From: Streptomyces sp. MA5143a
Lineage (GTDB): Bacteria; Actinomycetota; Actinomycetes; Streptomycetales; Streptomycetaceae
Length of the DNA stretch: 64,000 bases
Reading direction: 5' to 3'
Assembly (NCBI RefSeq): GCF_900290235.1
Contig: NZ_OLMK01000009.1
Location: forward strand, 363,847 to 427,846
Part shown: piece by piece, positions 5,936 to 49,500 of the stretch
Position numbering within the stretch: the first letter of the stretch is position 1
Layout of the letters: each line of letters starts with the position of its first letter
Notes under the pieces: generated by a model
The model's database searches: none
Told to the model about the DNA's origin: nothing
Seen by the model: only the letters and a program-made list of their open reading frames with translations
Program-made: the position numbers and the translations under genes

Positions 5936-6502
5936 TCAGGGTCGATCGTAGAAGCCGCCAATCCGTGCGCGGGCCAATGCCTGACCAGCCTCCAGGACAG
6001 CCTTCGGCTTCGCCGAGGCCACCGGTTTGCCTGCCACTGTGGAGATTGGTTCGGCGAGTGCGAACAGCTGGAACGCATAGCGGTGCGGGCCATGACCTTT
6101 GATCGGTGCCGGGCCCTGATAGCCGCGCCCTTGGCTCGACCGCAAGATCTGCACGCCCGCGTCGAGCGCGCTCGAATCAAGTGCGTTGCACGGTAACTCG
6201 GTCACTGCGGGGTCCAGCAGTGCCGCCGCGTGCACCAGCGGGCTTCGCAGCGGTACGTCGGGATCTTCGACCACGAGCAGCAACTGCGCGGTCTCGGCCG
6301 GTGGCAGCGCCCAGGCCAGCGCCGGCGAAAGATTCTGCCCGCCGAGTCTCTTCACCACATGCCGAACAGGAAGCGTGGTTTCGTGGTCGAAATTGGGACT
6401 GGTGATGTCGAAGGTGGCCGCAGCGGCCAGATTCGATCGGTGCCAGGCCAGGGTCTGTTCACCGGCGCGCCGATTGACAAGCAGTTTGCCGATCAGAGAC
6501 AT
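5936..6502 (-). CDS. YbhB/YbcL (Raf-kinase-inhibitor-like, PEBP) family protein
   Basis: This 188-residue protein is in the usual size range for bacterial phosphatidylethanolamine-binding-protein relatives. Family landmarks are FDITSPNFDHETTLP near residue 30, LAWALPPAETAQLLLVVEDPDVP (the conserved D-P-D ligand-pocket region) and GPHRYAFQLFAL near residue 140. The family binds small anionic ligands, and bacterial members have no settled function. Its start overlaps the end of an aldehyde dehydrogenase remnant, and an aldo/keto reductase lies upstream on the same strand. Codon use is less G/C-biased than in the rest of the window. Confidence 0.85.
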   Translation of the reverse strand: MSLIGKLLVNRRAGEQTLAWHRSNLAAAATFDITSPNFDHETTLPVRHVVKRLGGQNLSPALAWALPPAETAQLLLVVEDPDVPLRSPLVHAAALLDPAVTELPCNALDSSALDAGVQILRSSQGRGYQGPAPIKGHGPHRYAFQLFALAEPISTVAGKPVASAKPKAVLEAGQALARARIGGFYDRP

Positions 6503-6666
6503 CGCACTCCGTCGTTGTCGGTCGAGGCAGCATCACCCGCGATGACAGTGCCGTCGAGCAACCCCAGCGCGCGGGTGCCATCGGCGGAGTCGGCCACGGC
6601 GACCTCGGTCAGCACCTGGCCATCGGCCGGATCGAACATCGGAAACGTGCGTCCGTCGATGGCCGG
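6493..6666 (-). pseudogene. aldehyde dehydrogenase (succinate-semialdehyde type), N-terminal remnant
   Basis: One minus-strand frame reads IDGRTFPMFDPADGQVLTEV followed by a segment ending DSADGTRAL. This corresponds to the first 50 or so residues of NAD(P)-dependent semialdehyde/aldehyde dehydrogenases. It then departs from the family and stops at 6493-6495, inside the first codons of the PEBP gene. No Rossmann segment, catalytic Glu or Cys follows. It is an internal-deletion remnant between two intact genes. Confidence 0.65.
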
Positions 6667-6805
6667 CACCTGTTCACCACCACAGCCCGGTCGGAACCGA
6701 TGCGATGACTGTGTCCCTGTCGGGCCTTTCTTCTTCTCCTGGTCGGATGATCACCGAATGGATGGTGTTGTGGTGCGCGGCCCGGCGGGGCAGCGGCGGG
6801 AGGAC

Positions 6806-7786
6806 TCAGATGATTCCGTTGCGGACCAAGGTGTTCGCCGCTTCGAGCTTGGTGATCTCCTCGGTGGTGAGTTCGAGTTCGAGACCGGCGACGGCGTCGT
6901 CGATATGGCGTTCCTTCGTGGCACCCACAATCGGCGCGGCCACCGGGGATTTATTCGCCACCCAGGACGCCGCGACCTGCGCCATCGGCACCCCGCGAGC
7001 CTCGGCGACTTCCTGCACAGCGGTCACGACCCGCTTGTGCGATTCCTCGTCGCGGGTATACAGCTGTGGAGACAGTGTGTCGTTGGCTTCACGCCCGGAC
7101 CCTTCCGAACCCCACGGCCGGGTGAGCCGTCCGCGTGCGAGCGGGCTCCAGGGCAGAATTCCCATGCCTGTGGCTTCGGCATAGGGCGCGACCTCGCGTT
7201 CCAGATCCCGCGCCAGCAAGTTGTAGTGCAGCTGATTCGACACGAACTTGGTCCACCCGTGTCGGTCTGCCGCGTTCTGCATGAGCGCGAGCTGCCACAT
7301 CAGGAGATTGCATGCGCCTATATAGCGGGCTTTGCCAGCCTTGACCACGTCGTGCAGTGCTTCCATCGTCTCTTCGATCGGTGTATTCGGATCGAAAGCA
7401 TGGATTTGATAAAGGTCGACGTAGTCGGTACCAAGGCGGCGCAGCGAGGCGTCGATCTCGTGCATGATGGCGACCCGGCTCAGGCCGGAGCCGTTGCGAG
7501 ACGGGCGTTGATGCCCGTACACCTTCGTCGCGATCTGGAACTCTTCGCGGGGACCCAACTCTCTGGTCAGCGTGCCCAGGATTTCCTCACTTGTGCCGCT
7601 GGAATATACGTTGGAGGTGTCGAAGGTCGTGATACCCGCCTCGTAGGCGCGGCGGACGAACGGACGGGCCTCATCGAGGCCGATGGTCCACGACGGGTAG
7701 CCCTGCTCGGGGTCACCGTAGGTCATCATGCCCAGGATGACGCCGCTCATCTCCAGGCCGCTCTTGCCCAGTCGGACAGTTTTCAC
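6806..7786 (-). CDS. aldo/keto reductase
   Basis: This 326-residue protein is a full-length NADPH-dependent aldo/keto reductase with a TIM barrel. The catalytic Asp and Tyr are in FDTSNVYSSGTSEEILG and the Lys in QIATKVYG. GTDYVDLYQIHAFDP and the C-terminal nucleotide-binding IVGATKERHIDDAV are also present. The start is a GTG at 7786 with AAAGGAA seven bases upstream. It follows the MBL hydrolase by 22 bases, so the two are probably co-transcribed. The substrate is unknown. Composition suggests an origin outside the surrounding chromosome. Confidence 0.9.
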   Translation of the reverse strand: MKTVRLGKSGLEMSGVILGMMTYGDPEQGYPSWTIGLDEARPFVRRAYEAGITTFDTSNVYSSGTSEEILGTLTRELGPREEFQIATKVYGHQRPSRNGSGLSRVAIMHEIDASLRRLGTDYVDLYQIHAFDPNTPIEETMEALHDVVKAGKARYIGACNLLMWQLALMQNAADRHGWTKFVSNQLHYNLLARDLEREVAPYAEATGMGILPWSPLARGRLTRPWGSEGSGREANDTLSPQLYTRDEESHKRVVTAVQEVAEARGVPMAQVAASWVANKSPVAAPIVGATKERHIDDAVAGLELELTTEEITKLEAANTLVRNGII

Positions 7787-7808
7787 CTGTGATTCCTTTC
7801 ATGTGCGT

Positions 7809-8636
7809 TCAGTTCGTGTGGATTCGGTTGCTCGGGATCGGCTGCCACTGCCGTGAGCCCTGCTTGTCACGGATGATGCGGCCGCCCTGGGTCCCCGGGA
7901 AGTGTGCGCCGAGACCGATAGCTCCGGTACGTTCCATCTCTTGCGCGAGCCGGTCGCGGGCCCTGGCCGCCGCGGCGCGATCTTCGTCCAGGCGGTCGGT
8001 CCACCCATCCTCGACCAGGAGTACGGGGTGATGCGCGGTGTCCCCCAGCAGCAATACTCGTGCTTCGCCGGTCTCGATCTCGCCGACGCAGTTGCCGGGC
8101 GTGTGACCGGCGAACAGCCGCAGCGCGACCGAATCCGCGATCTCCGTTCGCTCCCCCTCGGCTAGGCGGAGAAGGTCGGAAACGGCATGGATGGTATCGG
8201 TCACCCGGGCCGTGGCAGGGTTGCTGCCGGGATCAGCACGCATCCAGTCGTAATCAGCGCGGTGGCAGTGGTGCCGGGCGTGAGTGAAGATCGGTTCACC
8301 CGCAGGAGCGACCCAGCCGACGTGGTCCAAGTGCAGGTGGGTGAGCACGACATCGGTGATCTGCTCGGGTGTGACGCCAAGATCGGCGAGCGAGTCGAAC
8401 AGCTTTCCGCGCGTTTCGACGATATCGATGTTCGGTCCCAGTCCCGCGTCGACCAGGATCGTCCGGTCTCCCGATCGCAGCAGGAAACCGCCCATCGGCA
8501 TGATCCAGCCCGCCCCGTCGAACCACGGCGGCGCGGTCTGCCAATCTTGGCCCGCGCCGGGCGGAGGGTCGAAGAATTCGCCCGGCGGTACGGGATGCTG
8601 AGCATCGAGTACGGGATCGATGCTGGTAACGACCAC
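7809..8636 (-). CDS. MBL-fold metallo-hydrolase
   Basis: 275 residues of the metallo-beta-lactamase fold. The metal-binding signature HLHLDH is near residue 105. Later ligands are the His in FAGHTPGN, the Asp in LLLGDTAHH and a His near the C-terminus in GLGAHFPG. This arrangement is seen in lactonases and related hydrolases that bind two metals. It has no signal peptide. The following aldo/keto reductase starts 22 bases downstream, suggesting a joint carbonyl or lactone step. The precise substrate cannot be assigned. Confidence 0.9.
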   Translation of the reverse strand: MVVTSIDPVLDAQHPVPPGEFFDPPPGAGQDWQTAPPWFDGAGWIMPMGGFLLRSGDRTILVDAGLGPNIDIVETRGKLFDSLADLGVTPEQITDVVLTHLHLDHVGWVAPAGEPIFTHARHHCHRADYDWMRADPGSNPATARVTDTIHAVSDLLRLAEGERTEIADSVALRLFAGHTPGNCVGEIETGEARVLLLGDTAHHPVLLVEDGWTDRLDEDRAAAARARDRLAQEMERTGAIGLGAHFPGTQGGRIIRDKQGSRQWQPIPSNRIHTN

Positions 8637-8828
8637 AAGGTCCTCCTCGGCGTTGTGTGGCGTGCACCGTGGGCGCCGGCAGTCGGCGGTGCAGCGGCGA
8701 CGGCACGGGCTTGGACGGCCTCATCGGTTCGCAGATCGTCCCCGCGGTGATGTCGTCACGGTTTTGTCGGGTGCAGTGCTGCGGGACCTCCGTGCCCGCG
8801 AACGAGGGGTGGAGCCGGATGAGAGGGC

Positions 8829-9935
8829 TCAGAAGGTGAAGACGGTTCGCAGGCCGGTGCCCGACTTCAGGTCGGCGATGGCCTCGTTGATCTCGGCCAG
8901 GGGACGACGCCGGGTGATGAGCTCGTCGAGCTTGAGGGTCCCTTCGAGGTACTCGCGCACCAGAACGGGGAAGTCGCGGGCCGAGTAGCCGCTGCCCATC
9001 AGCGAGCCGGTGATCACCTTCTCCTGGAGGATGATGTCGGCGATGTTGTCAAGGGCGAGTGCGGAGGAGCTGGGCGCCATGCCCAGGAGGACCGCGGTTC
9101 CGCCCGGGCGGATTGCGGAGACGGCCTGCACCATGCAGTCCGTCAGACCGGTGCTCTCGAACGTGAAGTGGGCGCCGAAGGGGCCGGTGACGGCGCGGAC
9201 GGCGTCGGGTACCTGCACGTGGCGGGCGTCGATGACGTGGGTCGCGCCGAACGCGGTCGCGGCCGCCAGCTTCTCCTCACTGACGTCGACCGCGATCACG
9301 CTGCCGGCGCCCGCCCGTCGTGCCGCCTGGACGATGTTCAGGCCCACTCCGCCGCAGCCGAGGACCGCGACGTGGTCGCCGGGCCGTACCGTGACCCGGT
9401 TGCGGACGGCACCCACTCCCGTGGAGACCGCGCAGCCGATGAGGCACGCGAGGTCCAGCGGCATGGCCTTGTCGATGGCGATGGCGCATTCCGCGGGCAC
9501 GATCGTCTCCTCGGTGAACGTGCCGAGGGGGCCGAAGGGGGTCACCGGGGTGCCGTCGACCGACAGGGCGGGGCCGTTCCCCGTGCGCGGGTCCGCCAGC
9601 TGAAGGCTCCGCAGGCACAACGAGGGATGATCGTCCGTACAGAACTCGCACGTGCCATCGTGCCCCAAGGCGGAGAGGATCACGTGGTCGCCGACGGCGG
9701 GGCCCAAGACGCCCGGGCCGACCTCGGTCACCACGCCGGCGCCCTCGTGTCCGGCGACCGCCGGTGGCGGCATGGTCATGCTGGCGACGCCGCCGTAGAG
9801 GGCCTGCACGTCCGTGTGGCACAGGCCGGCGGCGGCCATCCGGACACGGACTTCTCCAGGACCTGGCGGCCGGACGTCGACCTCGATGAATTCGACGGGG
9901 CCGTCTGCCTTTAATTGCACGGCTGCCTTGGTCAT
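8829..9935 (-). CDS. zinc-dependent alcohol dehydrogenase (MDR family)
   Basis: This 368-residue medium-chain dehydrogenase oxidises alcohols to aldehydes with NAD or a tightly bound nicotinamide. The N-terminal GroES-like domain has the catalytic-zinc ligands in GLCHTDVQ and GHEGAGVV. The Rossmann domain has VAVLGCGGVGLNIVQAA near residue 190. The structural-zinc loop is unusual: GHDGTCEFCTDDHPSLC has three cysteines, with Asp where the first is normally found. It lies 82 bases after another alcohol dehydrogenase, at the far end of the P450 gene series. Confidence 0.92.
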   Translation of the reverse strand: MTKAAVQLKADGPVEFIEVDVRPPGPGEVRVRMAAAGLCHTDVQALYGGVASMTMPPPAVAGHEGAGVVTEVGPGVLGPAVGDHVILSALGHDGTCEFCTDDHPSLCLRSLQLADPRTGNGPALSVDGTPVTPFGPLGTFTEETIVPAECAIAIDKAMPLDLACLIGCAVSTGVGAVRNRVTVRPGDHVAVLGCGGVGLNIVQAARRAGAGSVIAVDVSEEKLAAATAFGATHVIDARHVQVPDAVRAVTGPFGAHFTFESTGLTDCMVQAVSAIRPGGTAVLLGMAPSSSALALDNIADIILQEKVITGSLMGSGYSARDFPVLVREYLEGTLKLDELITRRRPLAEINEAIADLKSGTGLRTVFTF

Positions 9936-10017
9936 GTCTGTTTCCTTTCGTGTTGCTGATGTTGCTGGTGATCTCGTCGGCTGGAGTGCCCCGCTCCCGG
10001 CAGCGCGGCGGGAGGGT

Positions 10018-11037
10018 TCAGGGCCGCAGAATGGTCTTGACGAAGTCGCGTGCCATGAACGACTGGTAGGTCTCGGCGGCGGCGGACAGGGGGGCTTCGT
10101 GGTCGATGACGATGCCCGGCTCGATCCTCCCCGCGGTGATCATGGTGGTGAGGTTGTCGTTGGCCGCGTACGGGTTGCCGGTGACCGGCACGATGGTCAC
10201 CTGGCGTCCGAACAGGTTCTGCGCGGTGACCGGCAGGTCGCCGTCGAGCAGGACACCGACGAGACCGACGGTGCCGCCGAGGGCCACACACGCCAGGGCG
10301 GTGCTGATCGCAGGGATGGCGCCGACGGCGTCGATGGCCACGTCGACGCCGTTCCCACCGGTCAGTTCGAGAACGCGTTCGGCGGCACCCTCACCGCCGG
10401 GCACCGGCACCGCGCCGAGCTTCTCCGCCTGCTTCAGGCGACGCTGGTCCAGGTCCACGAGGTAGACGGCGGCCGCGCCGCGGGCGAGGGCCAGTTGCGC
10501 GATGAGGAGGCCGACCGGGCCGGAGCCGACGACGCCCACGGTCGCACCGCTCTGGAAGCGGGTCTTGACGAGCGCCTCCCAGGCGGTGGGGAGGATGTCG
10601 GTGAGGACGAGCGCGTCCTGGTCGGACACGGAGGCGTCGAGTTCGCTGAGTGTGAAGTCGGCGCGAGGGACGCGGACGTACTCGGCCTGGCCTCCGTCGA
10701 GGATGCCTCCGCCGAAGAGCCGGTATTCGGCGCACCGGGGCTGGTTCGCGGTGCGGCAGGGTTTGCACCGTCCGCAGGCGACGAACATCTTCGACAGCAC
10801 CCGCTGCCCCTCGGTCACATGGTGTACCTGGGTGCCCGTCTCGACGACGGTGCCGATGAACTCGTGCCCCAGCGTGAGGGTGGGCGGCAGGAAGGGGTGC
10901 CGGACGAAGTGCAGATCCGTCCCGCACACGGCGGCCGCGCTCACCTTGACGATCACGTCATCGGGTTCCACGACAGTGGGCTTGGGAGCATCCGTCACTT
11001 CGACGGTGCCATTGCCCTGGGTAACGACAGCGAGCAT
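10018..11037 (-). CDS. zinc-binding dehydrogenase (MDR family)
   Basis: About 339 residues. The catalytic zinc site is in AAVCGTDLHFVRHP and GHEFIGTV, and the full structural-zinc set of four cysteines is in CGRCKPCRTANQPRC. The Rossmann motif VGVVGSGPVGLLIAQLAL follows. The layout is that of threonine/sorbitol/formaldehyde dehydrogenase relatives. The start at 11037 is preferred because AAAGGAACCAGGA stands directly before it; an in-frame ATG 48 bases upstream has no such site. It follows the toroid-like gene by 52 bases and is probably part of the same transcript, where it could oxidise the alcohol made by the P450. Confidence 0.9.
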   Translation of the reverse strand: MLAVVTQGNGTVEVTDAPKPTVVEPDDVIVKVSAAAVCGTDLHFVRHPFLPPTLTLGHEFIGTVVETGTQVHHVTEGQRVLSKMFVACGRCKPCRTANQPRCAEYRLFGGGILDGGQAEYVRVPRADFTLSELDASVSDQDALVLTDILPTAWEALVKTRFQSGATVGVVGSGPVGLLIAQLALARGAAAVYLVDLDQRRLKQAEKLGAVPVPGGEGAAERVLELTGGNGVDVAIDAVGAIPAISTALACVALGGTVGLVGVLLDGDLPVTAQNLFGRQVTIVPVTGNPYAANDNLTTMITAGRIEPGIVIDHEAPLSAAAETYQSFMARDFVKTILRP

Positions 11038-11089
11038 TCCTGGTTCCTTTGCCGACGCACGTCCGTCTTTGGCCGTGCGAATCAATGCG

Positions 11090-12166
11090 TCAGGCGGGGG
11101 TGGTGCCGGCGCTCGTGGAGCGCAGGGCGTGCTCGATGTAGGACAGTTCCATCACGTGCTCGGCCGTCTTCCAGTACAGGTCGAGCATTCCGGGCCTCGG
11201 GGTCGCGAACGACGACGGTGCCCAGGCGCCGTCGTGGCGCTGGCGCTGTACGAACCACTCGCCCATCCGGACCGTCCAGGGGAGGTGGCCGCCGTCCGGG
11301 TCGGCCGTGAGCATGGCGGCGGCGCCCCAGCCGAACTTGCAGATCTGCACCGACGTCGGGTCGTCGTACTGCTCCTCGGTGCCGCGTGTGGTGAGGGTGA
11401 GGTACTCACGGCCCAGCCGGAGCGCGGAGGCGTCGCTGGTCTGTCGTGCGTATCCGGCGAGGAAGGCGGCGGCGATGCCGGGGTGGAAGTACGCCTGCCG
11501 GGGCGCCCGGAAGTCGACCACGCGGAGGAAGGCCGTCTCGTCCGGGAAGTCGGTGACCAGGGTGTCGCCGCGGCGGCTGGTGAACAGCCGGTGGGGCAGG
11601 TCGGGCTGGTCGGCGAGGTTGCGATTCAGCCACCGGTGGACGCCGTCGGCGGTGTGACGGTCACCGGTGACCAGCGCGGAGAAGCCCAGTTGGGCGGTCT
11701 TGAGGTTGTCCTCCAGGGGGTCCTGCGCGAAGTCGCGGAGGTCGTAGGCTCCGCCGGTGTCGGGGTTCTGGAAGCGTGCGAGCGTGGTGTTGATCGCGGT
11801 CGCGGTGTCGTAGCGGCCGAGCAGCCAGGAGGCGATCGCGAGGGGGGAGAGGTGGTAGACGGGGCTGGTGCCGCCGGGGGCGTCGTAGGGGCCGGAGCGG
11901 AGGTCGCCTTCGTCGGTGAGGGCCTCGCGTTCGGCCCAGCCCATCATCGCGGCGGCGGCGTCCGGGGCTCCGCCGACGCACAGGGCCCAAGGGGCGCGCC
12001 ACCACGAGTTGGCGGTCTCGGCGCCTTCGGGGCGGCCGTCGTCGGCAATGCGGTCGCGCAGCCAGGCCACCCCTTTGGCCCGTGCCTGGCTGATCCGGGT
12101 CAGCAGGTCGGGGGTGGGTTCGGTCGGCCAGGGGGCCGTTTCCGTGTCCGACGCGAGGGTCGTCAT
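11090..12166 (-). CDS. uncharacterised protein with an alpha-toroid-like sequence
   Basis: I do not recognise a named family for this 358-residue cytoplasmic protein. It is mostly helical, with several repeats of an aromatic, Gly- and Asp-rich turn between helices: FQNPDTGGAYDLRDF, TADPDGGHLPWTVRMGEWF and QRQRHDGAWAPS. This pattern is typical of alpha/alpha-barrel proteins such as six-hairpin glycosidases, terpene cyclases or prenyltransferases. No QW or DXDD motif is evident. Its ATG overlaps the stop of the HtaA-like gene as ATGA, so the two are translationally coupled and probably act together. It may be a catalytic or ligand-handling partner in the P450 pathway. Confidence 0.75.
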   Translation of the reverse strand: MTTLASDTETAPWPTEPTPDLLTRISQARAKGVAWLRDRIADDGRPEGAETANSWWRAPWALCVGGAPDAAAAMMGWAEREALTDEGDLRSGPYDAPGGTSPVYHLSPLAIASWLLGRYDTATAINTTLARFQNPDTGGAYDLRDFAQDPLEDNLKTAQLGFSALVTGDRHTADGVHRWLNRNLADQPDLPHRLFTSRRGDTLVTDFPDETAFLRVVDFRAPRQAYFHPGIAAAFLAGYARQTSDASALRLGREYLTLTTRGTEEQYDDPTSVQICKFGWGAAAMLTADPDGGHLPWTVRMGEWFVQRQRHDGAWAPSSFATPRPGMLDLYWKTAEHVMELSYIEHALRSTSAGTTPA

Positions 12167-12684
12167 GGTGTCTTCTCCAGGGCGGTTGTGGAGGACGGAG
12201 TGAGGAGGAGGGTCAGGTCGTCGAACGGTTCGTCCACGGGGTAGACCCCGTTGAAGAGTTCGGATCCCTGAGCAGTCAGCCGGACGTGCGTGCCGAGGCA
12301 AAAGTCGGCGTGGTCCGTCGGATCGGCGGTCCGCAGGTGGAGGGAGGTCAGGGGGATGCGCTCGGGTGACTGGCCGGGCGGTGCCGCGATGGTCAGGGTT
12401 CCCGCGCCGCCGGTGACGGACAGCCAGGGGTCGGCGATGCGGAGGAAGAGCAGCCCGTAGTGGGCGGCGAAGCGTACGTCTCCCCGGAACTTCAGCAGGC
12501 CGGTGACCGTGTCGGCGTCGAATGCCGACGCATCGTCCGGGCTGAAGAGGAACATGTGCTCGTCGACGACCGAGGCGCCGTCGGTGACCGAGCAGCGGCC
12601 CTCTGGAGAGCGGGCGATGTAGCGCAGGAACGGGACTTTGACGCTCCATCGCAGTCCGGGCAGGGTGGCCGGGCCGGCGGTCAT
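12163..12684 (-). CDS. HtaA-like domain protein without signal peptide
   Basis: The 173 residues form essentially a single HtaA-type domain. An opening LRWSVKVPFLRYI is followed by SVTDGAS and then the most characteristic part, FRGDVRFAAHYGLLFLRIAD, with WLSVTGGAGTLTI after it. In corynebacteria, HtaA domains are secreted or membrane-anchored haemoglobin/haem-binding modules that use conserved Tyr and His. Here there is neither a signal peptide nor a transmembrane anchor. The gene overlaps both neighbours by ATGA and sits between a ferredoxin reductase and a toroid-like protein. A cytoplasmic role in handling haem or a hydrophobic substrate for the P450 is possible but unproven. Confidence 0.7.
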   Translation of the reverse strand: MTAGPATLPGLRWSVKVPFLRYIARSPEGRCSVTDGASVVDEHMFLFSPDDASAFDADTVTGLLKFRGDVRFAAHYGLLFLRIADPWLSVTGGAGTLTIAAPPGQSPERIPLTSLHLRTADPTDHADFCLGTHVRLTAQGSELFNGVYPVDEPFDDLTLLLTPSSTTALEKTP

Positions 12685-13973
12685 GCCACTGCCTGCCGGG
12701 GATCGTCGGCGATGAGCTTCTTCAACGGCACCGTGGTGTCAGTGGCCGCTTCGGGCGGGATGGTCCGGCCCGCGGCCAAGGCGGAGCGTACGGCGAGGAA
12801 GTCGGCCGGCCGGTTGACGAAGTCGCCGGCGACCAGATGTCCGCCGCGGTAGTAGAGGACGGCGAACTTCTCCGTGTCCGGCTCGCCGCGTACGACGTAC
12901 CGGTCATGGCCGGTCGACAGGCCGGCGACCTGGAGTTTGAGGTCGTACTGGTCGGACCAGAACCAGGGCACGGCCCCGTAGGGGACCGGCCTGTCGGCGA
13001 GCAGGGCGGCGGCGGTCTTCGCCTGTTCGATGGCGGTGTTCACCGACTCGAAGCGGATCCGGGCCGGGCCGTCGGGGAGGTCCACCGGCGGGGGGCAGGC
13101 GACGCAGTCGCCCGCGGCGACCGTGGTGCCGTCGGAGGTGAGGCCGTACTCGTTGACGACGATGCCGTTGTCGACGGTCAGTCCGAGCTGCTCGGCGAGT
13201 TCGGTGCGGGGCACGGCGCCGATCCCGACGACCACCAGGTCGGCCGTCAGCGCGCTGCCGTCGGGGAGTTCGGCGCCACGGACGCGCCCGTGACCGTCGT
13301 CCAGGAGGCGTACGGGCGGCGCTCCGAGGTGCACTCGCACCCCGCGCCGGATGTGGGCGTCGAGGAAGAACTCGCTGGTCGGGACCCCTACGGCACGTTC
13401 GAGCAGTCGGTTGTCGGCGAGGGCGACGGTGACCTCGCAGCCGAGCCCCCGGGCACTGGCCGCGACTTCGAGTCCGATGAAGCCACCGCCGATGACCAGG
13501 ACGTCGACCGCCTCTGCCAGGGCCGCACGCAGGGCGAGCGCGTCGTCGGCGTCCCGGAGGTAGTGGACGCCGGCCAGATCGGCGCCGGGGACGGGCAGTC
13601 GTCGTGGGTGGGCGCCCACGGTGAGCGCGAGCCGGTCGAACGCGAAGCTACGGCCGGAGTGCGCGTACGCGACCCCTGCACCGCCGTCGCCCCGGTCGAC
13701 CCGGATGATGCGTTCCCCGAGGACCAGCCGGATGCCCTGGTCGGCGTAGAACGCCTCCGATCGCAGTGTGATCGCGTCGGGCGACGTCTCCGCGTGGAGG
13801 AGGGTCTTGGAGAGCGGTGGGCGCTGGTAGGGCGCGTGCTGTTCGGCGCCGACCACGGTGATCGGGGCTGTGTAGCCGTACTCGCGGAGGGAACAGGCCA
13901 GCTGGATGCCGGCCTGGCAGGCGCCCACCACGAGCACGCCGGTGTCGCGCGGGGCGACGGCGGTGCTGTTCAC
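12681..13973 (-). CDS. FAD-dependent ferredoxin reductase
   Basis: This 430-residue protein is of the rhodocoxin/putidaredoxin-reductase type. It transfers electrons from NAD(P)H through FAD to the adjacent ferredoxin. The first Rossmann motif is degenerate but recognisable (VLVVGACQAGIQLACSL). PYQRPPLSKTLL follows, then the NAD motif VLVIGGGFIGLEVAASARGL and the second FAD segment TVAAGDCVACP. The C-terminal dimerisation domain ends near residue 410. It lies six bases after the ferredoxin and overlaps the HtaA-like gene, completing a class I bacterial P450 electron chain. Confidence 0.93.
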   Translation of the reverse strand: MNSTAVAPRDTGVLVVGACQAGIQLACSLREYGYTAPITVVGAEQHAPYQRPPLSKTLLHAETSPDAITLRSEAFYADQGIRLVLGERIIRVDRGDGGAGVAYAHSGRSFAFDRLALTVGAHPRRLPVPGADLAGVHYLRDADDALALRAALAEAVDVLVIGGGFIGLEVAASARGLGCEVTVALADNRLLERAVGVPTSEFFLDAHIRRGVRVHLGAPPVRLLDDGHGRVRGAELPDGSALTADLVVVGIGAVPRTELAEQLGLTVDNGIVVNEYGLTSDGTTVAAGDCVACPPPVDLPDGPARIRFESVNTAIEQAKTAAALLADRPVPYGAVPWFWSDQYDLKLQVAGLSTGHDRYVVRGEPDTEKFAVLYYRGGHLVAGDFVNRPADFLAVRSALAAGRTIPPEAATDTTVPLKKLIADDPRQAVA

Positions 13974-13979
13974 GAGGTG

Positions 13980-14303
13980 CTACTCCTGGGCTTCCGGGGT
14001 GGTGACGCGCAGCTCGCCGAGCCCTTCGGAGAGCTTGATCTGGCAGGACAGCCGGGAGTTGGGGCAGCGGTCGACGACCGTGCCGTCGAGCATCTCGTCC
14101 TCCAGGCCGCTGACCGGTTCCAGCCGATCCAGGTCGGTTTCGTCCACGAAGACGTGACAGGTGGCGCAGGACAGGACGCCGCCGCATTCGCCGGTGATGC
14201 CGGGGACGCCGTTGCGGACTGCGGTCTGCATCACCGAGTCGCCGACCAGGCCGTCGACGACGCGGACCTCACCGGCGTCGGACACGTAAGTGACCTTGGG
14301 CAT
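13980..14303 (-). CDS. 2Fe-2S ferredoxin (adrenodoxin/putidaredoxin type)
   Basis: 107 residues, full length. The cluster ligands lie in CGGVLSCATC and in RCPNSRLSCQIKL, giving the Cys-x5-Cys-x2-Cys spacing and distal Cys of vertebrate-type P450 ferredoxins. It delivers electrons from the neighbouring FAD reductase to the P450, which ends five bases upstream. Such tight spacing suggests matched stoichiometry. The start is the ATG at 14303. Confidence 0.95.
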   Translation of the reverse strand: MPKVTYVSDAGEVRVVDGLVGDSVMQTAVRNGVPGITGECGGVLSCATCHVFVDETDLDRLEPVSGLEDEMLDGTVVDRCPNSRLSCQIKLSEGLGELRVTTPEAQE

Positions 14304-14308
14304 GTTCG

Positions 14309-15571
14309 TCACACCTCCGTCGGGGTCGAAGTGGGAGTGAAGGTCGCGGGGACCGAGATGTAGCCGTGCGCGCCCCCGATGCTCGGGTAGCCGACCACGG
14401 CGTCCGGGTCGATGCGCAGGCCGGGCAGCCGGGTGAGGATCGTCTCCAGCATGGCGTCGAGTTCGGCCTTGGCCAGGGGCGAGCCGAGGCAGCGGTGGTG
14501 TCCGGTGCTGAAGGAGACGTGGTCGCGCGCGTTGTCCCGCTCCAGGTCGAGCCGGTCCGGGTCGGGGAACTTCAGCGGGTCGCGGTTGGCGCCGGCCAGC
14601 CACATGTAGACGCTCTCCCCACGGGCGATCGGCTGCCCGAGGATCTCGGTGTCCCGTACGGCGGTACGGGCGATGCCGGTCCCCGGTGGCCAGAACCGCA
14701 GGAATTCCTCGATGGCGTTCTTCCGGTACGCGGCGTCCGTGCGCACCCGCTCCGCCTGGTCCGGGTGCTGGGTGAGATGGATCAGCGCACTCGCGGTCGC
14801 GGCGGTAGTGGTGTCGAAGCCGCCGAAGACCAGCGCGTTCACCATGCTCTCGGCCACCTCGAGACCGAGCGGTTCGCCCCGCACCGTACCGGTGGCCAGG
14901 GCCGAGAGGACGTCACCGGCCGGGTTCTGGCTGCGGGTGGCCAGCATGTCGCGGAAGCGGACCCGGAGCCGTGCCTGTGCCTCGTGCGGGTAGCGGGGAT
15001 CGTCCGGCAGCAGGTACACACCCTCGTGCGCGGCGTAGGCGGCGTCGTGCCAGTCGTCGGCGTCGTATCCGAGGACGTAGAGCGTGGTGCGTGCCGTGGT
15101 CGGGATGATCACGTCGTCGATCAGCTCGGCTTGCCCCCGCCCCGCCACCTTGTCGAGGGCCTCGTCGAGGTACTGCCGGGCGACGGGAGCCCACTGGCGC
15201 AGGGCTTTCGGGGTGAAGAACGGCGCTTCGATGCGGCGGCGTTCGGTGTGCAGCGGCGGGTCGGACTCCCCGAGGTGCAGCCGGTAGGGCATCTGGGGGA
15301 TGAGCTGGCCCTTGCCGCCGTTCTCGGTGCCGGTCAGGTCGTTGACGGAGGTGAAGGTCTCCCAGTCGGAGCCGATGCGCTGCACCTCCTCCCACGAGGC
15401 CACCACCCAGTAGCCGCCGTGGTGTTCGGTCCAGGCGATGGGGCTGCCGGTGGCGTGGAACCGGGCGGCGAGTTGCTTCCAGGTGTCGCGGTAGGCGGGC
15501 GAGTGGTGGTCGAAGTCGATGACCGGCCTGCCGGTGGCCGACCGCCGGACGAGGTCGTGGGTGACACTCAT
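14309..15571 (-). CDS. cytochrome P450 monooxygenase
   Basis: This 420-residue soluble bacterial P450 has all hallmark segments. The I-helix oxygen-binding region is FGGFDTTTAA, the K-helix ExxR is in EEFLRFWPP and the haem-ligand loop is FSTGHHRCLG with the axial Cys. It uses the ferredoxin and reductase encoded immediately downstream. Early residues QMPYRLHLGESDPPLHTERR are the C-helix region typical of catabolic actinobacterial P450s. The start at 15571 is chosen because AAAGG lies upstream and the next gene ends 31 bases before it. The substrate is unknown. Redox partners and dehydrogenases in the same series favour catabolism of a hydrophobic compound over antibiotic tailoring. Confidence 0.95.
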   Translation of the reverse strand: MSVTHDLVRRSATGRPVIDFDHHSPAYRDTWKQLAARFHATGSPIAWTEHHGGYWVVASWEEVQRIGSDWETFTSVNDLTGTENGGKGQLIPQMPYRLHLGESDPPLHTERRRIEAPFFTPKALRQWAPVARQYLDEALDKVAGRGQAELIDDVIIPTTARTTLYVLGYDADDWHDAAYAAHEGVYLLPDDPRYPHEAQARLRVRFRDMLATRSQNPAGDVLSALATGTVRGEPLGLEVAESMVNALVFGGFDTTTAATASALIHLTQHPDQAERVRTDAAYRKNAIEEFLRFWPPGTGIARTAVRDTEILGQPIARGESVYMWLAGANRDPLKFPDPDRLDLERDNARDHVSFSTGHHRCLGSPLAKAELDAMLETILTRLPGLRIDPDAVVGYPSIGGAHGYISVPATFTPTSTPTEV

Positions 15572-15602
15572 GTCGTACGGGCCTTTCTTCGCGGGAGCGG
15601 CA

Positions 15603-16898
15603 TCAGGACTGGCCGGCGGAGGCAGCTTTGGCGATGACCTCGTCGAGGATCGGGACGATGGCGTCGCCGAACCCGATGGGGTCGTCGCAGGGGGCGAAGT
15701 GCCCGAGCCCGGCGACCTTGATGAACTTGGCGCCGGGGATGAACTTCTCCACGGCCGGGCCGCCGTTGACGTCGTCGTCGCTGGCCGGGTCGTACTCGCC
15801 GGTGACGACGTAGACGGGCTTCGCGTGGGCGTCGATCTTGTGCCCGTTCTCCTTGAGGTCGTGCTCGTAGGCGAAGTAGTCGTTGTCGCCTGCGTAGATG
15901 CCGGGGAACGCCGAGCGGTAGATCCAGTACGTCTCGTGCGCGTTCGGCTCGGGTGCCTGGGGCGCGGTCGCACCGAAGTTGAGCGCGGGGGCGTAGCTGT
16001 CGGCGATCGACGGGGTACGGAACATGTCGTTGGAGAAGCCGTCGAACAGCGGCGGGTTGCCGTACCAGCCGTTGAGGGAGATGAACGCGCCGAAGCGGTC
16101 GCCGCGTTCGGCCGCGAGGTCGAGGGCGAGCTGGCCGCCGACCGAGCAGCCCATGAAGTACGGGTTGTCCAGGCCCAGGGTGTCGGCGATCGCGACCACC
16201 CAGTTGATCAGGCCGTCGCGGCCGGGGCGGTAGGTCTCCTCCCACCAGCGCACCCCGATCGGAGGCAGCGACTTGCCGTGGTAGGGCAGGTCGTAGGCGT
16301 ACATCGTGAAGCGTTCCTGCATCCGCGGGTCGGCCAGCAGGTGGCGGTATTGGCGGCCGTCGGCGCCTGCGGTCGCCTGCAGCAGCAGCGGGATCGGGCC
16401 GTGGCCGGAGGTCTCGTAGTAAATCCGTGCCTCCTGGCCGTTCGCGGAGACGTAGACGTACCGTCCGACGGCGTTGTCCGTCTCGCGGAAGGGGTCCTGG
16501 AAGGGCTTGCGGACCGGCGCGCCGGCCACCGTCTCGCGCACCACCTGGTACAGGCGGGACCAGCCGCTCTGCCAGGGGGCGACGGTGCCGCCGAAGTCGC
16601 CGACGATCCTCAGACCGCGGGTCATGCCGACGACGCAGCTCTCGTAGCCGGCCGGGGGGACAGCAGCGGAGAACGCGGTCGACCAGAACTCGGCCGGCGC
16701 GGAGAAGGTCACATCGGCGGCGAGGTCCGCGTGCACCTCCTCGGCCCTGGCGGGGACACCGTCCTCGACCACCAGGTCGAACGCCCCCTCGGGCAGATCG
16801 AACCGGACGCGGCCGGAGTAGGTGCGCAGCTTGTAGGCCAGTTCCTTGTCGGAACCGGCCGCCGCGAGGATCTTCTGTCGATCGACGAGAGCAGTCAT
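15603..16898 (-). CDS. alpha/beta hydrolase with N-terminal SCP2-like domain
   Basis: 431 residues in two parts. Residues 1-130 resemble a sterol-carrier-protein-2 fold (YSGRVRFDLPEGAFDLVVED) and probably bind a hydrophobic ligand. Residues 150-430 are an alpha/beta hydrolase with nucleophile elbow MGCSVGGQ, oxyanion region PLLLQATAGADG, an acidic residue in VVTGEYDPASD and terminal His in GLGHFAPC. It is the first gene of the P450 series and lies directly behind the TetR operator region. It could open a lactone or ester formed in the pathway, or release the P450 substrate. The start at 16898 has a GGAAG upstream; an earlier in-frame ATG at 17012 would run through the operator. Confidence 0.85.
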   Translation of the reverse strand: MTALVDRQKILAAAGSDKELAYKLRTYSGRVRFDLPEGAFDLVVEDGVPARAEEVHADLAADVTFSAPAEFWSTAFSAAVPPAGYESCVVGMTRGLRIVGDFGGTVAPWQSGWSRLYQVVRETVAGAPVRKPFQDPFRETDNAVGRYVYVSANGQEARIYYETSGHGPIPLLLQATAGADGRQYRHLLADPRMQERFTMYAYDLPYHGKSLPPIGVRWWEETYRPGRDGLINWVVAIADTLGLDNPYFMGCSVGGQLALDLAAERGDRFGAFISLNGWYGNPPLFDGFSNDMFRTPSIADSYAPALNFGATAPQAPEPNAHETYWIYRSAFPGIYAGDNDYFAYEHDLKENGHKIDAHAKPVYVVTGEYDPASDDDVNGGPAVEKFIPGAKFIKVAGLGHFAPCDDPIGFGDAIVPILDEVIAKAASAGQS

Positions 16899-16969
16899 GG
16901 GAGCCCGCTTCCTTGCGTGCCGGGAGGGGAGAGAAGCGGCCGACGGGCCATGCCGTACGGCCGTCCATT

Positions 16970-17014
16970 TCGTGTCACACTGTGACTCGAAGTCGGTGTC
17001 ACCGTATGACACGA
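16970..17014. promoter_or_regulatory. compound inverted-repeat operator between P450 series and TetR
   Basis: Two adjacent dyads share one core. GTCACA-C-TGTGAC lies at 16974-16986, and GTGTCA-N5-TGACAC at 16996-17012. The outer ends, TCGTGTCA (16970) and TGACACGA (17014), also pair perfectly. The spacing of the two dyads, about two helical turns, suits a pair of TetR dimers repressing both directions. Confidence 0.65.
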
Positions 17015-17098
17015 ACCTGGGTGTGGCAAGAGGTGGGGAAACGTGATGGAAATCAATGGCGGTCGAACGCCTGAACAGTCGCCTGTCGCCGGATTCGC

Positions 17099-17111
17099 TA
17101 GCCTGGCCCGG
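17099..17111 (+). promoter_or_regulatory. candidate leaderless promoter of TetR gene
   Basis: TAGCCT (17099-17104) precedes the GTG at 17111 by exactly six bases, and no ribosome-binding site is visible. The geometry is the same as at 4224-4236 and 39504-39516. Confidence 0.45.
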
Positions 17112-17812
17112 TGAGGGACGAGAGCTGGGCCACCGGAGCGAGCGCCGCGCTGCTCGCCGCCGTACAAGGAGTCGCGGCGGTCACCGAGGAGCGGCGCGGA
17201 ACGACCCTGCGCGACACCAGGAGCATCGCGCGCAGGCTCGGCACGAGCGCAGTCGCGCTCTTCGCCCAACGGGGCTTCGACGACGTGAAGGTCAGCGAGA
17301 TCGCCGCGCACGCGGGGGTCACGTCACGGACGTTCTTCCGGTACTTCCCGTCGAAGGAAACCGTGATCCTCGACATCTGGGACCAGACGAACGCACGTCT
17401 CATGGAGCTGATCGAGACGGTGGGGCAACCCGAGGCCGAGGTGCTGCCGACGCTCACCGAAGCCGTCGTGGCCTGGTGTCGCGAATACGGGGACCTCTTC
17501 CGCGCCCTGGCTCCGATGACCGAGCAGTCCGAGACCCTCATGGCGGCTGTCAACCTCCGCACTGTCGTCTGGGAGGACCATCTCGCGGACGCGCTGCGTG
17601 TGCGGTACCCGGAACTCGACGAGATGGACGCCAAGGTGTGGAGTTCCACGACGATGGCCCTGCTCCGCCTCTTCCAACGCAACGCCGTCGCCCACGGCCT
17701 CAGTTACGCGGAGGCCGCCCAGGACGTCTTCGACCGGCTCGCCGCCCTGACGTCAAGGAGCTCGTCGCATCGGATCACAGCCGGCTCCCGTCGCCCCAGC
17801 GACATCGCCTGA
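17111..17812 (+). CDS. TetR-family transcriptional regulator
   Basis: 233 residues. The helix-turn-helix lies at residues 38-85: ALFAQRGFDDVKVSEIAAHA then TSRTFFRYFPSKETV. The C-terminal ligand-binding region includes AMTEQSETLMAAVNLR. It is divergent from the hydrolase-P450-ferredoxin series across a 212-base gap holding a strong compound dyad, so it is the probable local repressor, and the P450 substrate or product its probable ligand. It starts at the GTG at 17111, apparently without a leader. Confidence 0.92.
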   Translation: MRDESWATGASAALLAAVQGVAAVTEERRGTTLRDTRSIARRLGTSAVALFAQRGFDDVKVSEIAAHAGVTSRTFFRYFPSKETVILDIWDQTNARLMELIETVGQPEAEVLPTLTEAVVAWCREYGDLFRALAPMTEQSETLMAAVNLRTVVWEDHLADALRVRYPELDEMDAKVWSSTTMALLRLFQRNAVAHGLSYAEAAQDVFDRLAALTSRSSSHRITAGSRRPSDIA

Positions 17813-17829
17813 CGCCCCAACTCCGGGCT

Positions 17830-18223
17830 CTAGCCCTCTGCCCAGTGACGGTCGAGGGGCTCGTTCAAGCACTGCAGGGCCTGCTCGCGCAGCTGGGCCA
17901 GATCCTCCGCCGTGCCCCGGGGAAGAGCCGCCCAGCGGTGATGGGCGGCGCGCAGCGCCGTGCCGACCGCGCCGACGGCGAGAAAGGGGCGCAGGTCGGT
18001 GTCCGGGTCGACGCCCTCGCGCTCGGCGAGCTTGCGCGCGAGACGGTCCTCGATCGACAGGAGGCGCTGGAAGTAGGCGGCTAGCAGCGGCGGGGAGTTC
18101 TCCAGCAGCCACACGATGCGCGTCCACAGTTCGCCGGTGCCGTCGTCGGCCTGCATCAGCCGCTCCACGACGGTACGGGCCGCGTTGGCGAACGCGGTGA
18201 CCGGCGGCTCCTCGGCCGGGCGT
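17830..18223 (-). pseudogene. TetR-family regulator, C-terminal remnant
   Basis: This frame keeps about 130 residues of the effector domain of a MftR/AcrR-like TetR protein (TRIVWLLENSPPLLAAYFQR, LRPFLAVGAVGTALRAAHHR) but no DNA-binding domain. Upstream the sequence passes directly into a fragment of a different gene, an MFS transporter. A 38-base piece (18086-18123) recurs in inverted orientation at 25487-25524. An internal ATG at 18168 could give a 112-residue product, but it would lack the DNA-binding half. Confidence 0.7.
18086..18123 (-). repeat. TetR-fragment repeat, left copy (38 identical bases)
   Basis: These 38 bases are identical, on the opposite strand, to 25487-25524. They encode TRIVWLLENSPPL in the TetR remnant. 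Together with the pair 18475-18612/25208-25346 they form mirrored arms around the 18.6-25.2 kb interval. Confidence 0.8.
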
Positions 18224-18274
18224 GCCGTGCACGTTCTGCAGGTAGAAGGTCATGTAGAACATGGCCCCGAACAG
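18224..18274 (-). pseudogene. MFS transporter fragment (EmrB/DHA2 type)
   Basis: Seventeen codons read LFGAMFYMTFYLQNVHG, a stretch closely resembling a transmembrane helix of 14-TM drug exporters. The frame is lost on both sides, and the TetR remnant joins right after it. Such exporters are commonly adjacent to TetR genes, so this may be what is left of one exporter/regulator pair fused by deletion. Confidence 0.6.
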
Positions 18275-18474
18275 ACACGAGTGTCGGACGCAAGGAAAAA
18301 GTTCAGTACCCGCGGCCCTGATTCCGGAACGCGTTCGTGGTTCCGCGGGACTGCACATCGTTTGACAGACCCCCTGATCCTCAAGCAGAACGCGGCTGGG
18401 AGGGAGAGCTGCAGGGACACGACGCAGGCGCATCTCGGTTCCCGCCGCGACACCGGAGTCGCTCCCGGTGATGG

Positions 18475-46570: not shown

Positions 46571-49500
46571 TCAGCCGCCGACCGTGCCGCCCCGCTCCGA
46601 CGTGTCGCCGCCTCGTTCCCGGTCCCAGGCCGCCGCGAACATCTCGTGCAGGGGCGTCGGCGGCAGGATGCGGCCGAAGAGGGAGACGAGCTGGTTGCCC
46701 CACAGCGGGCGCACCCCGTACGCGTGCAGCTTCACGGTTTCGAGGGGCAGATGAGGGGCCTTCAGCTCGGTCCAGCCCCCGGGCAGGAACAGGGACCGGC
46801 CGGCGCGCGCCCGCTTGGCCGCGACGACCGCGCCGGTGCCGAGCAGTTCCTCCCGGACCTGCGCGTGCCGCTTGGTCGACCAGCCGTTCCACCGTCGTAC
46901 GTCCCGGTCGGTGGGCGCGGCCAGCGTGGCCAGCTGGAGGTACAACGCGGCGGCGTCCGCGCCGACCGCGAGTTCCCTCGACGCACGTGCGACCAGCTCC
47001 GGGCAGGACCGACGTGGATCCGCCTCGTACGCCCCGGCCGGAACCGCTCCCGAGGACGACCGGTCCCTCATTCGCTCCAGGCCGCCCCCCACCAGCAGGG
47101 GCGCCACCCGGTCCAGAGCCTCGGCCAGGCCGGTGATCCCCCTCACCCGCCGCCACACGCCCGGGTCGGCGACCTCGCACGGGCGCAGGAACGCGTCCCC
47201 GCCGGGCGCGCACACGACGAGGGGGCCGGAGTCGTAGGCGGTCACCGGGACCGGGCCCTCCGCCTTGCGCCGGTCCGCCGCCACCGGCAGCCGCTCGGGA
47301 CCGAACCGCTCCGCGATGCGCGCCGGGGTGTCCTCGACCCGGCCGCCGGGCAGCGCCAGCAGCAGGTCCGGCCGGTCCAGTTCGGCCCGCAGCCGCTCGT
47401 ACAGGGCCCGCGCGCCCGCCACGGCCGGATCACCGACGGGCCGGTCCGTCCAGGCCCACACCAGAGCGGCGCAGGCGCTCCGGACGTCGAGGCCCACCGG
47501 GGTGCCGTAGGGCAGCTCGGTCTCCGCCGACACGGCCCGCACCTCCACGCCATGGCCGTACGGGGTCGCCGCCAGCTCCCAGCCCGCCGCCTCCACGGTC
47601 GTGTCCGCCGCTGCCTCGTAGCCACCCGCGAGCCGCCGGGCCCAGACCTCGGACAGGCCCGGCCCGGCCTCCAGGGCGTCGGCGGCCTCGTCGTGCACGA
47701 CGGGCTCGGCCCCCATGCGTTCCCGCCACACCTCTGCCATCCGCTCCGCGGCCGCCTCGACACCGCCGGGCCGCCACAGCTCGGTCGGGTCGTCGGGCAG
47801 AGCGGCCGTCAGAACCGCCCGGCCTCCCTCGGCCCCGAGCCGCTTCCGCAGCCCGTCGTAGGACTCGGCGGTGAACGGGGAGGCCCGGTAGGGGGCCTTC
47901 CGCACCAGGGCACGGTCCTCCTCGCGGTCGGGCCGGCCGACCAGACCGGCGACGACGAGCCGGGCGACGGCCCTCCGTACGCCCGTCAGATCGGCGAAGC
48001 GCGCGGCCGCCGCCTCGGTCACCGGAACCGGGCCGTGCGCCTCGACAGCCGTGACCAGGGCACGCATCCGGGCGGCGTCGTCCCGCCGTACCCGGACGTG
48101 GCGTGCCCCCGGGACCGCCGCGCCCACCGGGTCGTCGTGCGGATCGTCGGCGGCGGCCGCCACGAACCAGCACTCCCGCCCGTTGGCGCGACAGGTCCCC
48201 GAAGCCACCGCGATCCCGCGCTCACGCAGGCCGTCCAGGACCTCCGCCGGGGCGCGGCCCACCCACCACCGGCCGCCGGCGCGGGCGAACGGCTGGTCGG
48301 CCCACGTGTCGAGCAGCGCCACCAGGGCGGCTCGTGCCGTGTCCGGGGTGGGTGCCACCGCGGCCCGCCAGGCCACCGCGTCGATCGCCCCCATCAGTTG
48401 CGACCAGTCCCGCGGCGGTGCCGGGGGCGAGAGCCGTCGTACCTCCTCCGGGATGGTCCCCGCCAGGCAGGCGCCGTCCGCGGCCAGCGCGCTCAGCGTC
48501 GCCGGCAGGGCGATGCCGGGGCTGCTCCGCCGCGGCTCCCGACCGCCGTCCGCGACCAGTCCGAACAGCGCGGGCAGCAGCGCGGTGTCCGGCGCTGACC
48601 GGCGCGGCGGTGCCGGCGGCGCCTGCGCGAGCAGGGTGACCCTCCGGTGCAGGGCGAGCCTGCGCTCCTCCACCCGGGCGGCCCGCTCGGCGACCGCGAC
48701 GACCGCCTGGACCAGCACCGGGTCGGTGACGCCGGGCAACTCCCGCGCCACGGCGGCGCGCAGTGCCGCCCCGTCGGTGCGGGCGGCCGTCAGCAACACC
48801 TGCGCCGTCTCCCGCCCGACGGACCGCAGGACCCGGGACCCGGCCTCGTCCCGGGTGCGCAGCAGGTACCAGAAGGCGGGTGGCGGGGCCACCCCGCCCG
48901 AGACGGTGGCCGCCCGGGTCCGCCGCCCTCGCGGATGCCTCGGTGAGCGATGTCCGTCCACCTCCCACAGCAGGGTCCCGTCGGCGCTGTACGCGCGCAC
49001 CCCTGTCCTGGTCTCCGCCTCGGCGAGGACCACGTCCTGCGCCGCACCCCCCGGTGGCGCCCACAGGCCCCACGGCTCCTGGCCGGGCCGGTCGATGTCG
49101 AACCTGGCCGTGCGCCCGTCCACACTCTCCACCAGGTAGTGGTCGGGCGCGTGATCGCGGTGCCGGGTGCGGAACAGCACCCGCGTCCCGACCAGCCCGT
49201 CCCGGCTGCCCAGCGGCGAGTCGGCCGAGGAGGCGGGCAGCGGTGCCAGCTGGAGGGCCTCGACGGCCAGGGACATGCCTGCCTCGGACGGCTCCGTGCC
49301 CGGAGCGGAGCCCGGCGCGCGACCGGGGAAGTCCGGCAGCGCGACCTCCCCGCGGGGCTCCCCGGTGACCCCGTCCACCACCTCCCAGGGCCGTCCCCCG
49401 AAGACGGCGTTGGTCCAGATCCGGGCACCGTCCCCGAGCTGTAGCTCGTCGCGGTCGATCCCCTCCCGGCCGCCCGGCCGCAGCACCCGCCGGCCACCGT

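What the first reader, a model, noticed from the sequence alone, without database searches (positions are those of the whole stretch)
11090..17812. Regulated P450 pathway of unusual composition
A TetR-controlled leftward series joins an SCP2-like/alpha-beta hydrolase fusion, P450, ferredoxin and ferredoxin reductase to an HtaA-like protein and a toroid-like protein. Seen: tight spacing, two ATGA overlaps and a compound operator. Known: P450, ferredoxin and reductase form a class I electron chain. Inference: the two odd proteins serve the same oxidation, perhaps holding the substrate or haem, and the dehydrogenases downstream finish it. I know of no described pathway with this set.
Basis: partly seen in the sequence, partly recalled or inferred. 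Interest (0 to 1): 0.75.

Follow-up and report, generated by a model that had tools for sequence, protein, structure and literature searches.

The report
P450 operon with unusual aldolase-like enzyme
A rare set of genes, found in several actinobacteria and in part in one Sphingobium, puts an oxygen-adding P450 enzyme beside a hydrolase and a relative of an antibiotic-making aldolase that would cut a carbon-carbon bond, and in most of the actinobacterial copies examined beside a protein of the haem-grabbing HtaA family that would hold or deliver haem inside the cell; it is likely a pathway for breaking down a compound not yet known.

The parts
17111..17812 (+). TetR-family regulator, divergent
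   Evidence: TetR_N E 1e-15; kept beside the operon in Streptomyces loci and Paractinoplanes (64% id)
16969..17015 (.). tandem operator: two imperfect palindromes 24 bases apart
   Evidence: single place in own genome at up to 1 mismatch
15603..16898 (-). alpha/beta hydrolase with an N-terminal extension that is at best SCP2-like; Ser252-Asp370-His400
   Evidence: Abhydrolase_1 E 2.8e-13; the three residues invariant in 17 of 17 rows; SCP2 only weak
14309..15571 (-). cytochrome P450
   Evidence: PF00067 E 1.1e-23; FSTGHHRCLG, GGFDTT and EFLR motifs
13980..14303 (-). [2Fe-2S] ferredoxin of putidaredoxin type
   Evidence: Fer2; C-x5-C-x2-C...C; ferredoxins 4ltu, 3hui, then putidaredoxin, best in PDB
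12681..13973 (-). FAD ferredoxin reductase of putidaredoxin-reductase type
   Evidence: Pyr_redox_2, Reductase_C; putidaredoxin reductase 1q1r E 9.6e-76
12163..12684 (-). HtaA-like (CR domain) protein without evident signal or membrane segment; Tyr22, His75, Tyr148
   Evidence: PF04213 77.8 bits, cut-off 24
11090..12166 (-). AprG-like alpha/alpha-toroid protein, predicted aldolase-type enzyme; Lys277
10018..11037 (-). zinc-type alcohol dehydrogenase 1
   Evidence: among P450-bearing loci only in Streptomyces
8829..9935 (-). zinc-type alcohol dehydrogenase 2, nearest NCBIfam model the NDMA-dependent type (below its cut-off)
   Evidence: among P450-bearing loci only in Streptomyces; a 40% relative lies beside the P450-free toroid of L042
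7809..8636 (-). metallo-beta-lactamase-fold hydrolase
   Evidence: PF00753; same Pfam family next to the toroid in Paractinoplanes (26% id), near the AKR in Sphingobium, next to it in Lentzea (92% id)
6806..7786 (-). aldo/keto reductase
   Evidence: PF00248; 46, 56 and 97% id in Sphingobium, Paractinoplanes, Lentzea; second-best PDB match DepB
6565..6684 (-). remnant of an aldehyde dehydrogenase gene
   Evidence: 50% id over 40 residues to the Paractinoplanes ALDH, E 1e-5; longer remnant in S. torulosus (L010)

Best explanation
This is a TetR-flanked, likely substrate-induced catabolic operon in which a P450 with its own putidaredoxin-type ferredoxin and reductase is predicted to hydroxylate a still unknown compound, the AprG-like toroid protein would then split a carbon-carbon bond by a retro-aldol step, and the HtaA-like protein would hold or deliver haem for the P450. 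Steps, with their status. (1) A ligand likely releases TetR from the tandem operator (operator shown; binding and ligand inferred). (2) The alpha/beta hydrolase and the metallo-beta-lactamase-fold enzyme likely open an ester or lactone (fold and triad shown; substrate inferred). (3) The P450 would add oxygen with electrons from NAD(P)H through reductase and ferredoxin (components shown by homology; reaction inferred). (4) Alcohol dehydrogenases or the aldo/keto reductase would set the alcohol/carbonyl pattern that a retro-aldol needs (inferred). (5) The toroid protein, through Lys277 as a Schiff base, would cleave the beta-hydroxy-carbonyl intermediate (homology to AprG shown; lysine role and direction inferred). 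(6) The aldehyde released would be oxidised, by the aldehyde dehydrogenase found in the relatives and by other dehydrogenases here (inferred).
Against: No substrate, transcript, enzyme assay or inducer. I found no paper on AprG's catalytic residues, so the role of its Lys263 is unknown to me, and AprG works in the joining direction. Toroid and AprG are only 22% identical, and 33 of 60 family-conserved positions differ. Outside Streptomyces and Paractinoplanes (75%) the P450s are only 35-42% identical to the window's and may act on other compounds. HtaA is missing from the Nocardia and Sphingobium loci, so it is not essential to the chemistry; the Dietzia result shows haem removal from P450, the opposite of delivery. 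In the window HtaA, Ser is Pro at position 18 and Gly is Ala at position 74. Three toroid loci (Rhodococcus plasmid; two in G563) have no P450 match.
Confidence: 0.44

Rival explanations
1. The toroid protein is an isomerase or epimerase of the AGE/cellobiose-epimerase style, or a cyclase/dehydratase of the squalene-hopene-cyclase style, acting on the P450 product without C-C cleavage.
Confidence: 0.3
2. The operon is biosynthetic or tailoring (a specialised metabolite), not catabolic.
For: The nearest characterised relative of the toroid, AprG, belongs to the apramycin pathway; the operon is rare (4 of 392 Streptomyces genomes with any toroid match, own included, one a short match).
Against: No synthase gene among the operon genes or the neighbours scanned (not every window gene was scanned); part of the set also sits in Sphingobium with EthD, SDR and ALDH; dedicated putidaredoxin-type redox partners.
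Confidence: 0.2
3. The HtaA-like protein does not supply haem: it binds the hydrophobic substrate or product, senses haem, or takes haem back from spent P450.
For: Absent from two P450 loci; a Dietzia HtaA protein extracts haem from cytochrome P450 in vitro (PMC8027190, passages); other Streptomyces HtaA genes lie in a haem transport cluster (PMC10060970, passages).
Against: The three main haem-site residues are invariant in 15 of 15, which speaks against a pure substrate binder; no haem uptake or degradation family was seen among the operon proteins.
Confidence: 0.38
4. The pathway detoxifies a trichothecene-like mycotoxin.
For: The AKR resembles DepB (8hwn, E 1.6e-52); DepB reduces 3-keto-DON, and a Sphingomonas P450 with ferredoxin and reductase hydroxylates DON (PMC9726736, passages read).
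Against: The top AKR match is another enzyme (4xk2); DdnA itself was not compared; AprG-like and HtaA-like proteins are not in the passages read.
Confidence: 0.05

Closest known systems
Class I catabolic P450 systems (P450cam, CYP199 and similar)
   Same: P450 with a dedicated putidaredoxin-type ferredoxin and FAD reductase, TetR-family gene alongside (TetR control of camphor genes is recalled)
   Different: Adds an AprG-like enzyme and an HtaA-like protein; no Baeyer-Villiger monooxygenase among the operon proteins scanned
AprG, apramycin pathway of Streptoalloteichus tenebrarius (PDB 9lfi, 9c95)
   Same: Fold, length, 27 of 60 conserved positions, shared lysine
   Different: 22% identity; lies in an oxidative gene set, not an aminoglycoside pathway; AprG builds a C-C bond, here cleavage is inferred
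HtaA/ChtA CR-domain hemophores of Corynebacterium; DtHtaA of Dietzia
   Same: Beta-sandwich fold, axial Tyr, helper His, propionate Tyr
   Different: Single small domain without evident signal or membrane anchor, linked to its P450-operon neighbours by ATGA overlaps; Ser and Gly of the site replaced in the window copy
Deoxynivalenol catabolism (DdnA-Kdx-KdR P450 chain; DepB)
   Same: Three-part P450 chain and a DepB-like AKR
   Different: Different gene set; no evidence for this substrate
EthD-associated P450 systems (EthRABCD, recalled)
   Same: In Sphingobium an EthD-domain gene lies between hydrolase and P450
   Different: No EthD gene among the called genes of the window operon, none matched in the other Streptomyces loci

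Membership tests
Class I bacterial P450 system | P450 with haem-thiolate motif | tested here: met
   PF00067; FSTGHHRCLG at 354
Class I bacterial P450 system | [2Fe-2S] ferredoxin and FAD reductase alongside | tested here: met
Class I bacterial P450 system | electrons pass from NAD(P)H through these two proteins to this P450 | not testable with these tools
   needs purified proteins
PF04213 (HtaA / CR domain) | Pfam family above curated cut-off and CR fold | tested here: met
   77.8 bits against 24; 6jsa by Foldseek
PF04213 (HtaA / CR domain) | axial Tyr, helper His, propionate Tyr | tested here: met
   Y22, H75, Y148 in 15 of 15 rows, which hold 13 of the 31 hits; roles from PMC12494546
PF04213 (HtaA / CR domain) | binds hemin | not testable with these tools
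   needs titration
Haem-uptake hemophores (HtaA, ChtA) | propionate Ser in helix 1 and Gly before the helper His | tested here: not met
   window has Pro18 and Ala74; Ser in 9 of 15, Gly in 12 of 15
Haem-uptake hemophores (HtaA, ChtA) | secreted or membrane-anchored | tested here: not met
   no hydrophobic segment in 15 of 15 by a plain hydropathy scan; no signal predictor was used
AprG-like aldolase family | sequence homology and common fold | tested here: met
AprG-like aldolase family | shared candidate catalytic lysine | tested here: met
   K277 in 42 of 42 rows, aligned to AprG K263; its catalytic role is inferred
AprG-like aldolase family | aldol or transaldol activity | not testable with these tools
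   needs assay
Squalene-hopene-type cyclases | DxDD protonation motif (recalled) | tested here: not met
   0 of 42 rows
AGE / cellobiose 2-epimerases | pair of catalytic histidines (recalled) | tested here: inconclusive
   one conserved His, H337, in 90% of rows; no residue-level structural alignment was available
SCP2 sterol-transfer domain | Pfam PF02036 match in the hydrolase | tested here: inconclusive
   none for the window protein; 5 of 17 members, best E 0.005

The most novel reading that the evidence does not exclude
The operon defines an undescribed oxidative degradation route in which a new alpha/alpha-toroid family of Schiff-base retro-aldolases, relatives of AprG, cleaves the carbon skeleton after a P450 step, and in which a cytosolic HtaA protein is a haem chaperone dedicated to one P450, a role I found described for no HtaA protein.
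Probability: 0.23. Interest if true: 0.82.

Novelty: new variant of a known kind. Interest (0 to 1): 0.6.

Why it matters
It ties a protein family that bears only names such as 'hypothetical protein' in the entries listed to a defined gene set and to a solved relative with a named reaction, so its chemistry can be tested directly. It places an HtaA domain, apparently inside the cell, next to a P450: a concrete candidate for how a bacterium handles haem for one oxidase, a step for which I know of no dedicated protein (recalled). If right, carbon-carbon cleavage in degradation would join epimerisation, glycan cleavage and terpene cyclisation among the reactions of toroid folds.

Tried and rejected
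Toroid as squalene-hopene-type cyclase: DxDD is in 0 of 42 rows. A wider sample for context gave little: 1 of 249 and 1 of 251 genomes in the families of the Sphingobium and Nocardia genomes, in each case the starting genome. A first mapping of AprG onto the family alignment was off by one column and was corrected by consensus agreement, 263 of 328 against 29 of 328. HtaA in 12 of 296 actinobacterial genomes (own included): the other 11 were not inspected for P450 neighbours, since the loci held were only about 3.5 kb; the hydropathy comparison on them used plus-strand frames only and is crude. A search with the hydrolase in 198 genomes found 10 besides the own at 31-41% identity, several covering only the hydrolase part; their neighbours were not read, so the hydrolase family may well be wider than this gene set. 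Family alignments hold part of the hits: A1 41 of the 120 toroid proteins listed, A2 13 of 31 HtaA, A4 14 of 120 hydrolases.

Papers: searches listed no description of this gene set; only open-licence PMC papers are covered. PMC12494546, PMC9726736, PMC10060970, PMC11033246 and PMC8027190 were seen as passages only, all others as listings.

Full report
What is there. The window lies in a 9.8 Mb genome whose closest loci are named Streptomyces. Reading leftward from a TetR gene at 17111-17812(+), the genes are: alpha/beta hydrolase 15603-16898, P450 14309-15571, ferredoxin 13980-14303, reductase 12681-13973, HtaA-like 12163-12684, toroid 11090-12166, then two alcohol dehydrogenases 10018-11037 and 8829-9935, a metallo-beta-lactamase-fold hydrolase 7809-8636 and an aldo/keto reductase 6806-7786. 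Reductase/HtaA and HtaA/toroid overlap by ATGA. No terminator-like site was found in 6500-17900.

Operator. Between TetR and the hydrolase gene lie two imperfect palindromes, 24 bases apart. Paractinoplanes, whose TetR is 64% identical, keeps both at the same spacing while the rest of the gap has changed more. With up to one mismatch the pattern is found at one place only in the own genome.

The unit in other genomes. The search for related loci gave nine loci; two more came from 392 Streptomyces genomes (G104, G350), one from a plasmid, and two places in one genome, G563, of an actinobacterial sample of 396. With the window this makes 15 near-full toroid loci (L014 is broken into two frames). 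Twelve of 15 carry a P450 homologous to the window's, or part of one: window, L009, L010, L011 (3' part), L012, L013, L014 (remnant), L015, L016, L017, G104, G350. Identity is 93% or more in the Streptomyces loci apart from the L014 remnant (73-83%), 75% in Paractinoplanes, and 35-42% in Lentzea, Nocardia and Sphingobium. The three without a match are the Rhodococcus plasmid (L028) and both G563 places. HtaA is in 9 of 15; it is missing from Nocardia, Sphingobium, L014 and the three P450-free loci. The Lentzea HtaA is only 29% identical. Many Streptomyces copies are nearly identical, so the independent evidence is five lineages: Streptomyces, Paractinoplanes, Nocardia, Lentzea, Sphingobium. 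Further fragments or short matches (a second place in L017, L046, L047, L025, L041) were not counted.

A check that does not rest on these loci: of 72 toroid proteins whose longest contig is at least 5 kb, 21 share the exact contig length with a hydrolase entry (20 of 54 at 10 kb), 22 pairs in all, against a mean of 0.14 pairs, largest 3, in 1000 jittered controls. HtaA entries share a contig length with a toroid entry in two cases, one of them with neighbouring locus tags in Streptomyces sp. MNU77. For 24 toroid/hydrolase pairs the distance matrices correlate at r 0.863, reached by none of 5000 permutations; shared descent of the hosts may contribute.

What varies. Paractinoplanes, Nocardia, Lentzea and Sphingobium have an aldehyde dehydrogenase close to the toroid, P450 or reductase gene. 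The intact Streptomyces loci have the two alcohol dehydrogenases instead, and a short aldehyde dehydrogenase remnant follows the aldo/keto reductase in the window (6565-6684) and in S. torulosus. A 40% relative of the second alcohol dehydrogenase lies beside the P450-free toroid of L042. Sphingobium adds an EthD-domain gene and an SDR and shows no ferredoxin or reductase match nearby. Lactamase-fold and aldo/keto reductase genes recur in Paractinoplanes, Sphingobium and Lentzea (the Paractinoplanes lactamase-fold protein is only 26% identical), not in the Nocardia stretch, so they likely belong to the pathway.

The HtaA-like protein. PF04213 at 77.8 bits, predicted fold closest to the HtaA C-terminal domain. 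In the corynebacterial CR domains hemin is held by an axial Tyr, a helper His that is preceded by Gly, and Ser and Tyr at a propionate (PMC12494546, passages). Tyr22, His75 and Tyr148 are present in 15 of 15 rows; Ser is present in 9 of 15 and Gly in 12 of 15, and the window copy lacks both. The proteins show no signal or membrane segment in a hydropathy scan. It is the only PF04213 match found in the genome; other Streptomyces HtaA proteins lie in haem transport clusters (PMC10060970, passages). A Dietzia HtaA protein takes haem out of cytochrome P450 in vitro (PMC8027190, passages): this shows that the two kinds of protein can exchange haem, but the direction seen there is removal. A haem-holding role for the P450 is the simplest reading. 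Nocardia and Sphingobium lack the gene near their P450, so it would be an aid, not a catalyst.

The rest. The ferredoxin and reductase are of the putidaredoxin type, the style of catabolic P450 chains (recalled). The hydrolase keeps Ser252, Asp370, His400 in 17 of 17 rows. Its N-terminal part is at best a diverged SCP2 domain. The aldo/keto reductase has DepB, a mycotoxin-reducing enzyme, as second-best solved match; this is a lead on chemistry, not on substrate.

Verdict. The unit and its co-occurrence are well supported (about 0.9). An enzymatic, AprG-type role of the toroid is likely (0.7), aldol-type cleavage less certain (0.5). Haem binding by the HtaA-like protein is likely (0.65), service to the P450 less so (0.45). 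Catabolism over biosynthesis 0.75. Substrate unknown.

Noticed in passing
window 17830-18316 (-): Remnants of a second TetR gene (MftR-type C-terminal part, no N-terminus) and of an MFS transporter; both are intact in S. afghaniensis L009 1916-4338.
   Followed up: partly
protein hits P0228, P0230, P0233: Fungi (Aspergillus spectabilis, Fonsecaea) have hydrolases 53-57% identical to the window's over 96-97% of its length, suggesting transfer between bacteria and fungi.
   Followed up: no
L045 17062-19995; L048 3958-6395; L047 2280-4771: A different, second P450 set with its own reductase lies near the aldo/keto reductase or beside toroid fragments in other genomes.
   Followed up: partly
L014 9083-11040; L011 7365-11490: Decayed copies of the operon in S. 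coeruleorubidus and Streptomyces sp. DSM 15324, with broken frames and missing genes.
   Followed up: partly
protein hits P0135-P0150: Small HtaA-domain proteins of about 161 residues, one named as Candidatus Nanopelagicales; the four aligned keep the haem-site residues and lack membrane segments; context not seen.
   Followed up: partly
L028 11941-24984 (Rhodococcus rhodochrous plasmid pGD02.2.1): A 38% identical toroid without a P450 match sits among SDR, hydrolase, CoA-ester lyase, MmgE/PrpD, CaiB and acyl-CoA dehydrogenase genes, another degradative setting for the family.
   Followed up: partly
window 46571-51352 (-): A called frame of 1593 residues without any Pfam match at E 1e-5; may be a wrong frame.
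   Followed up: no
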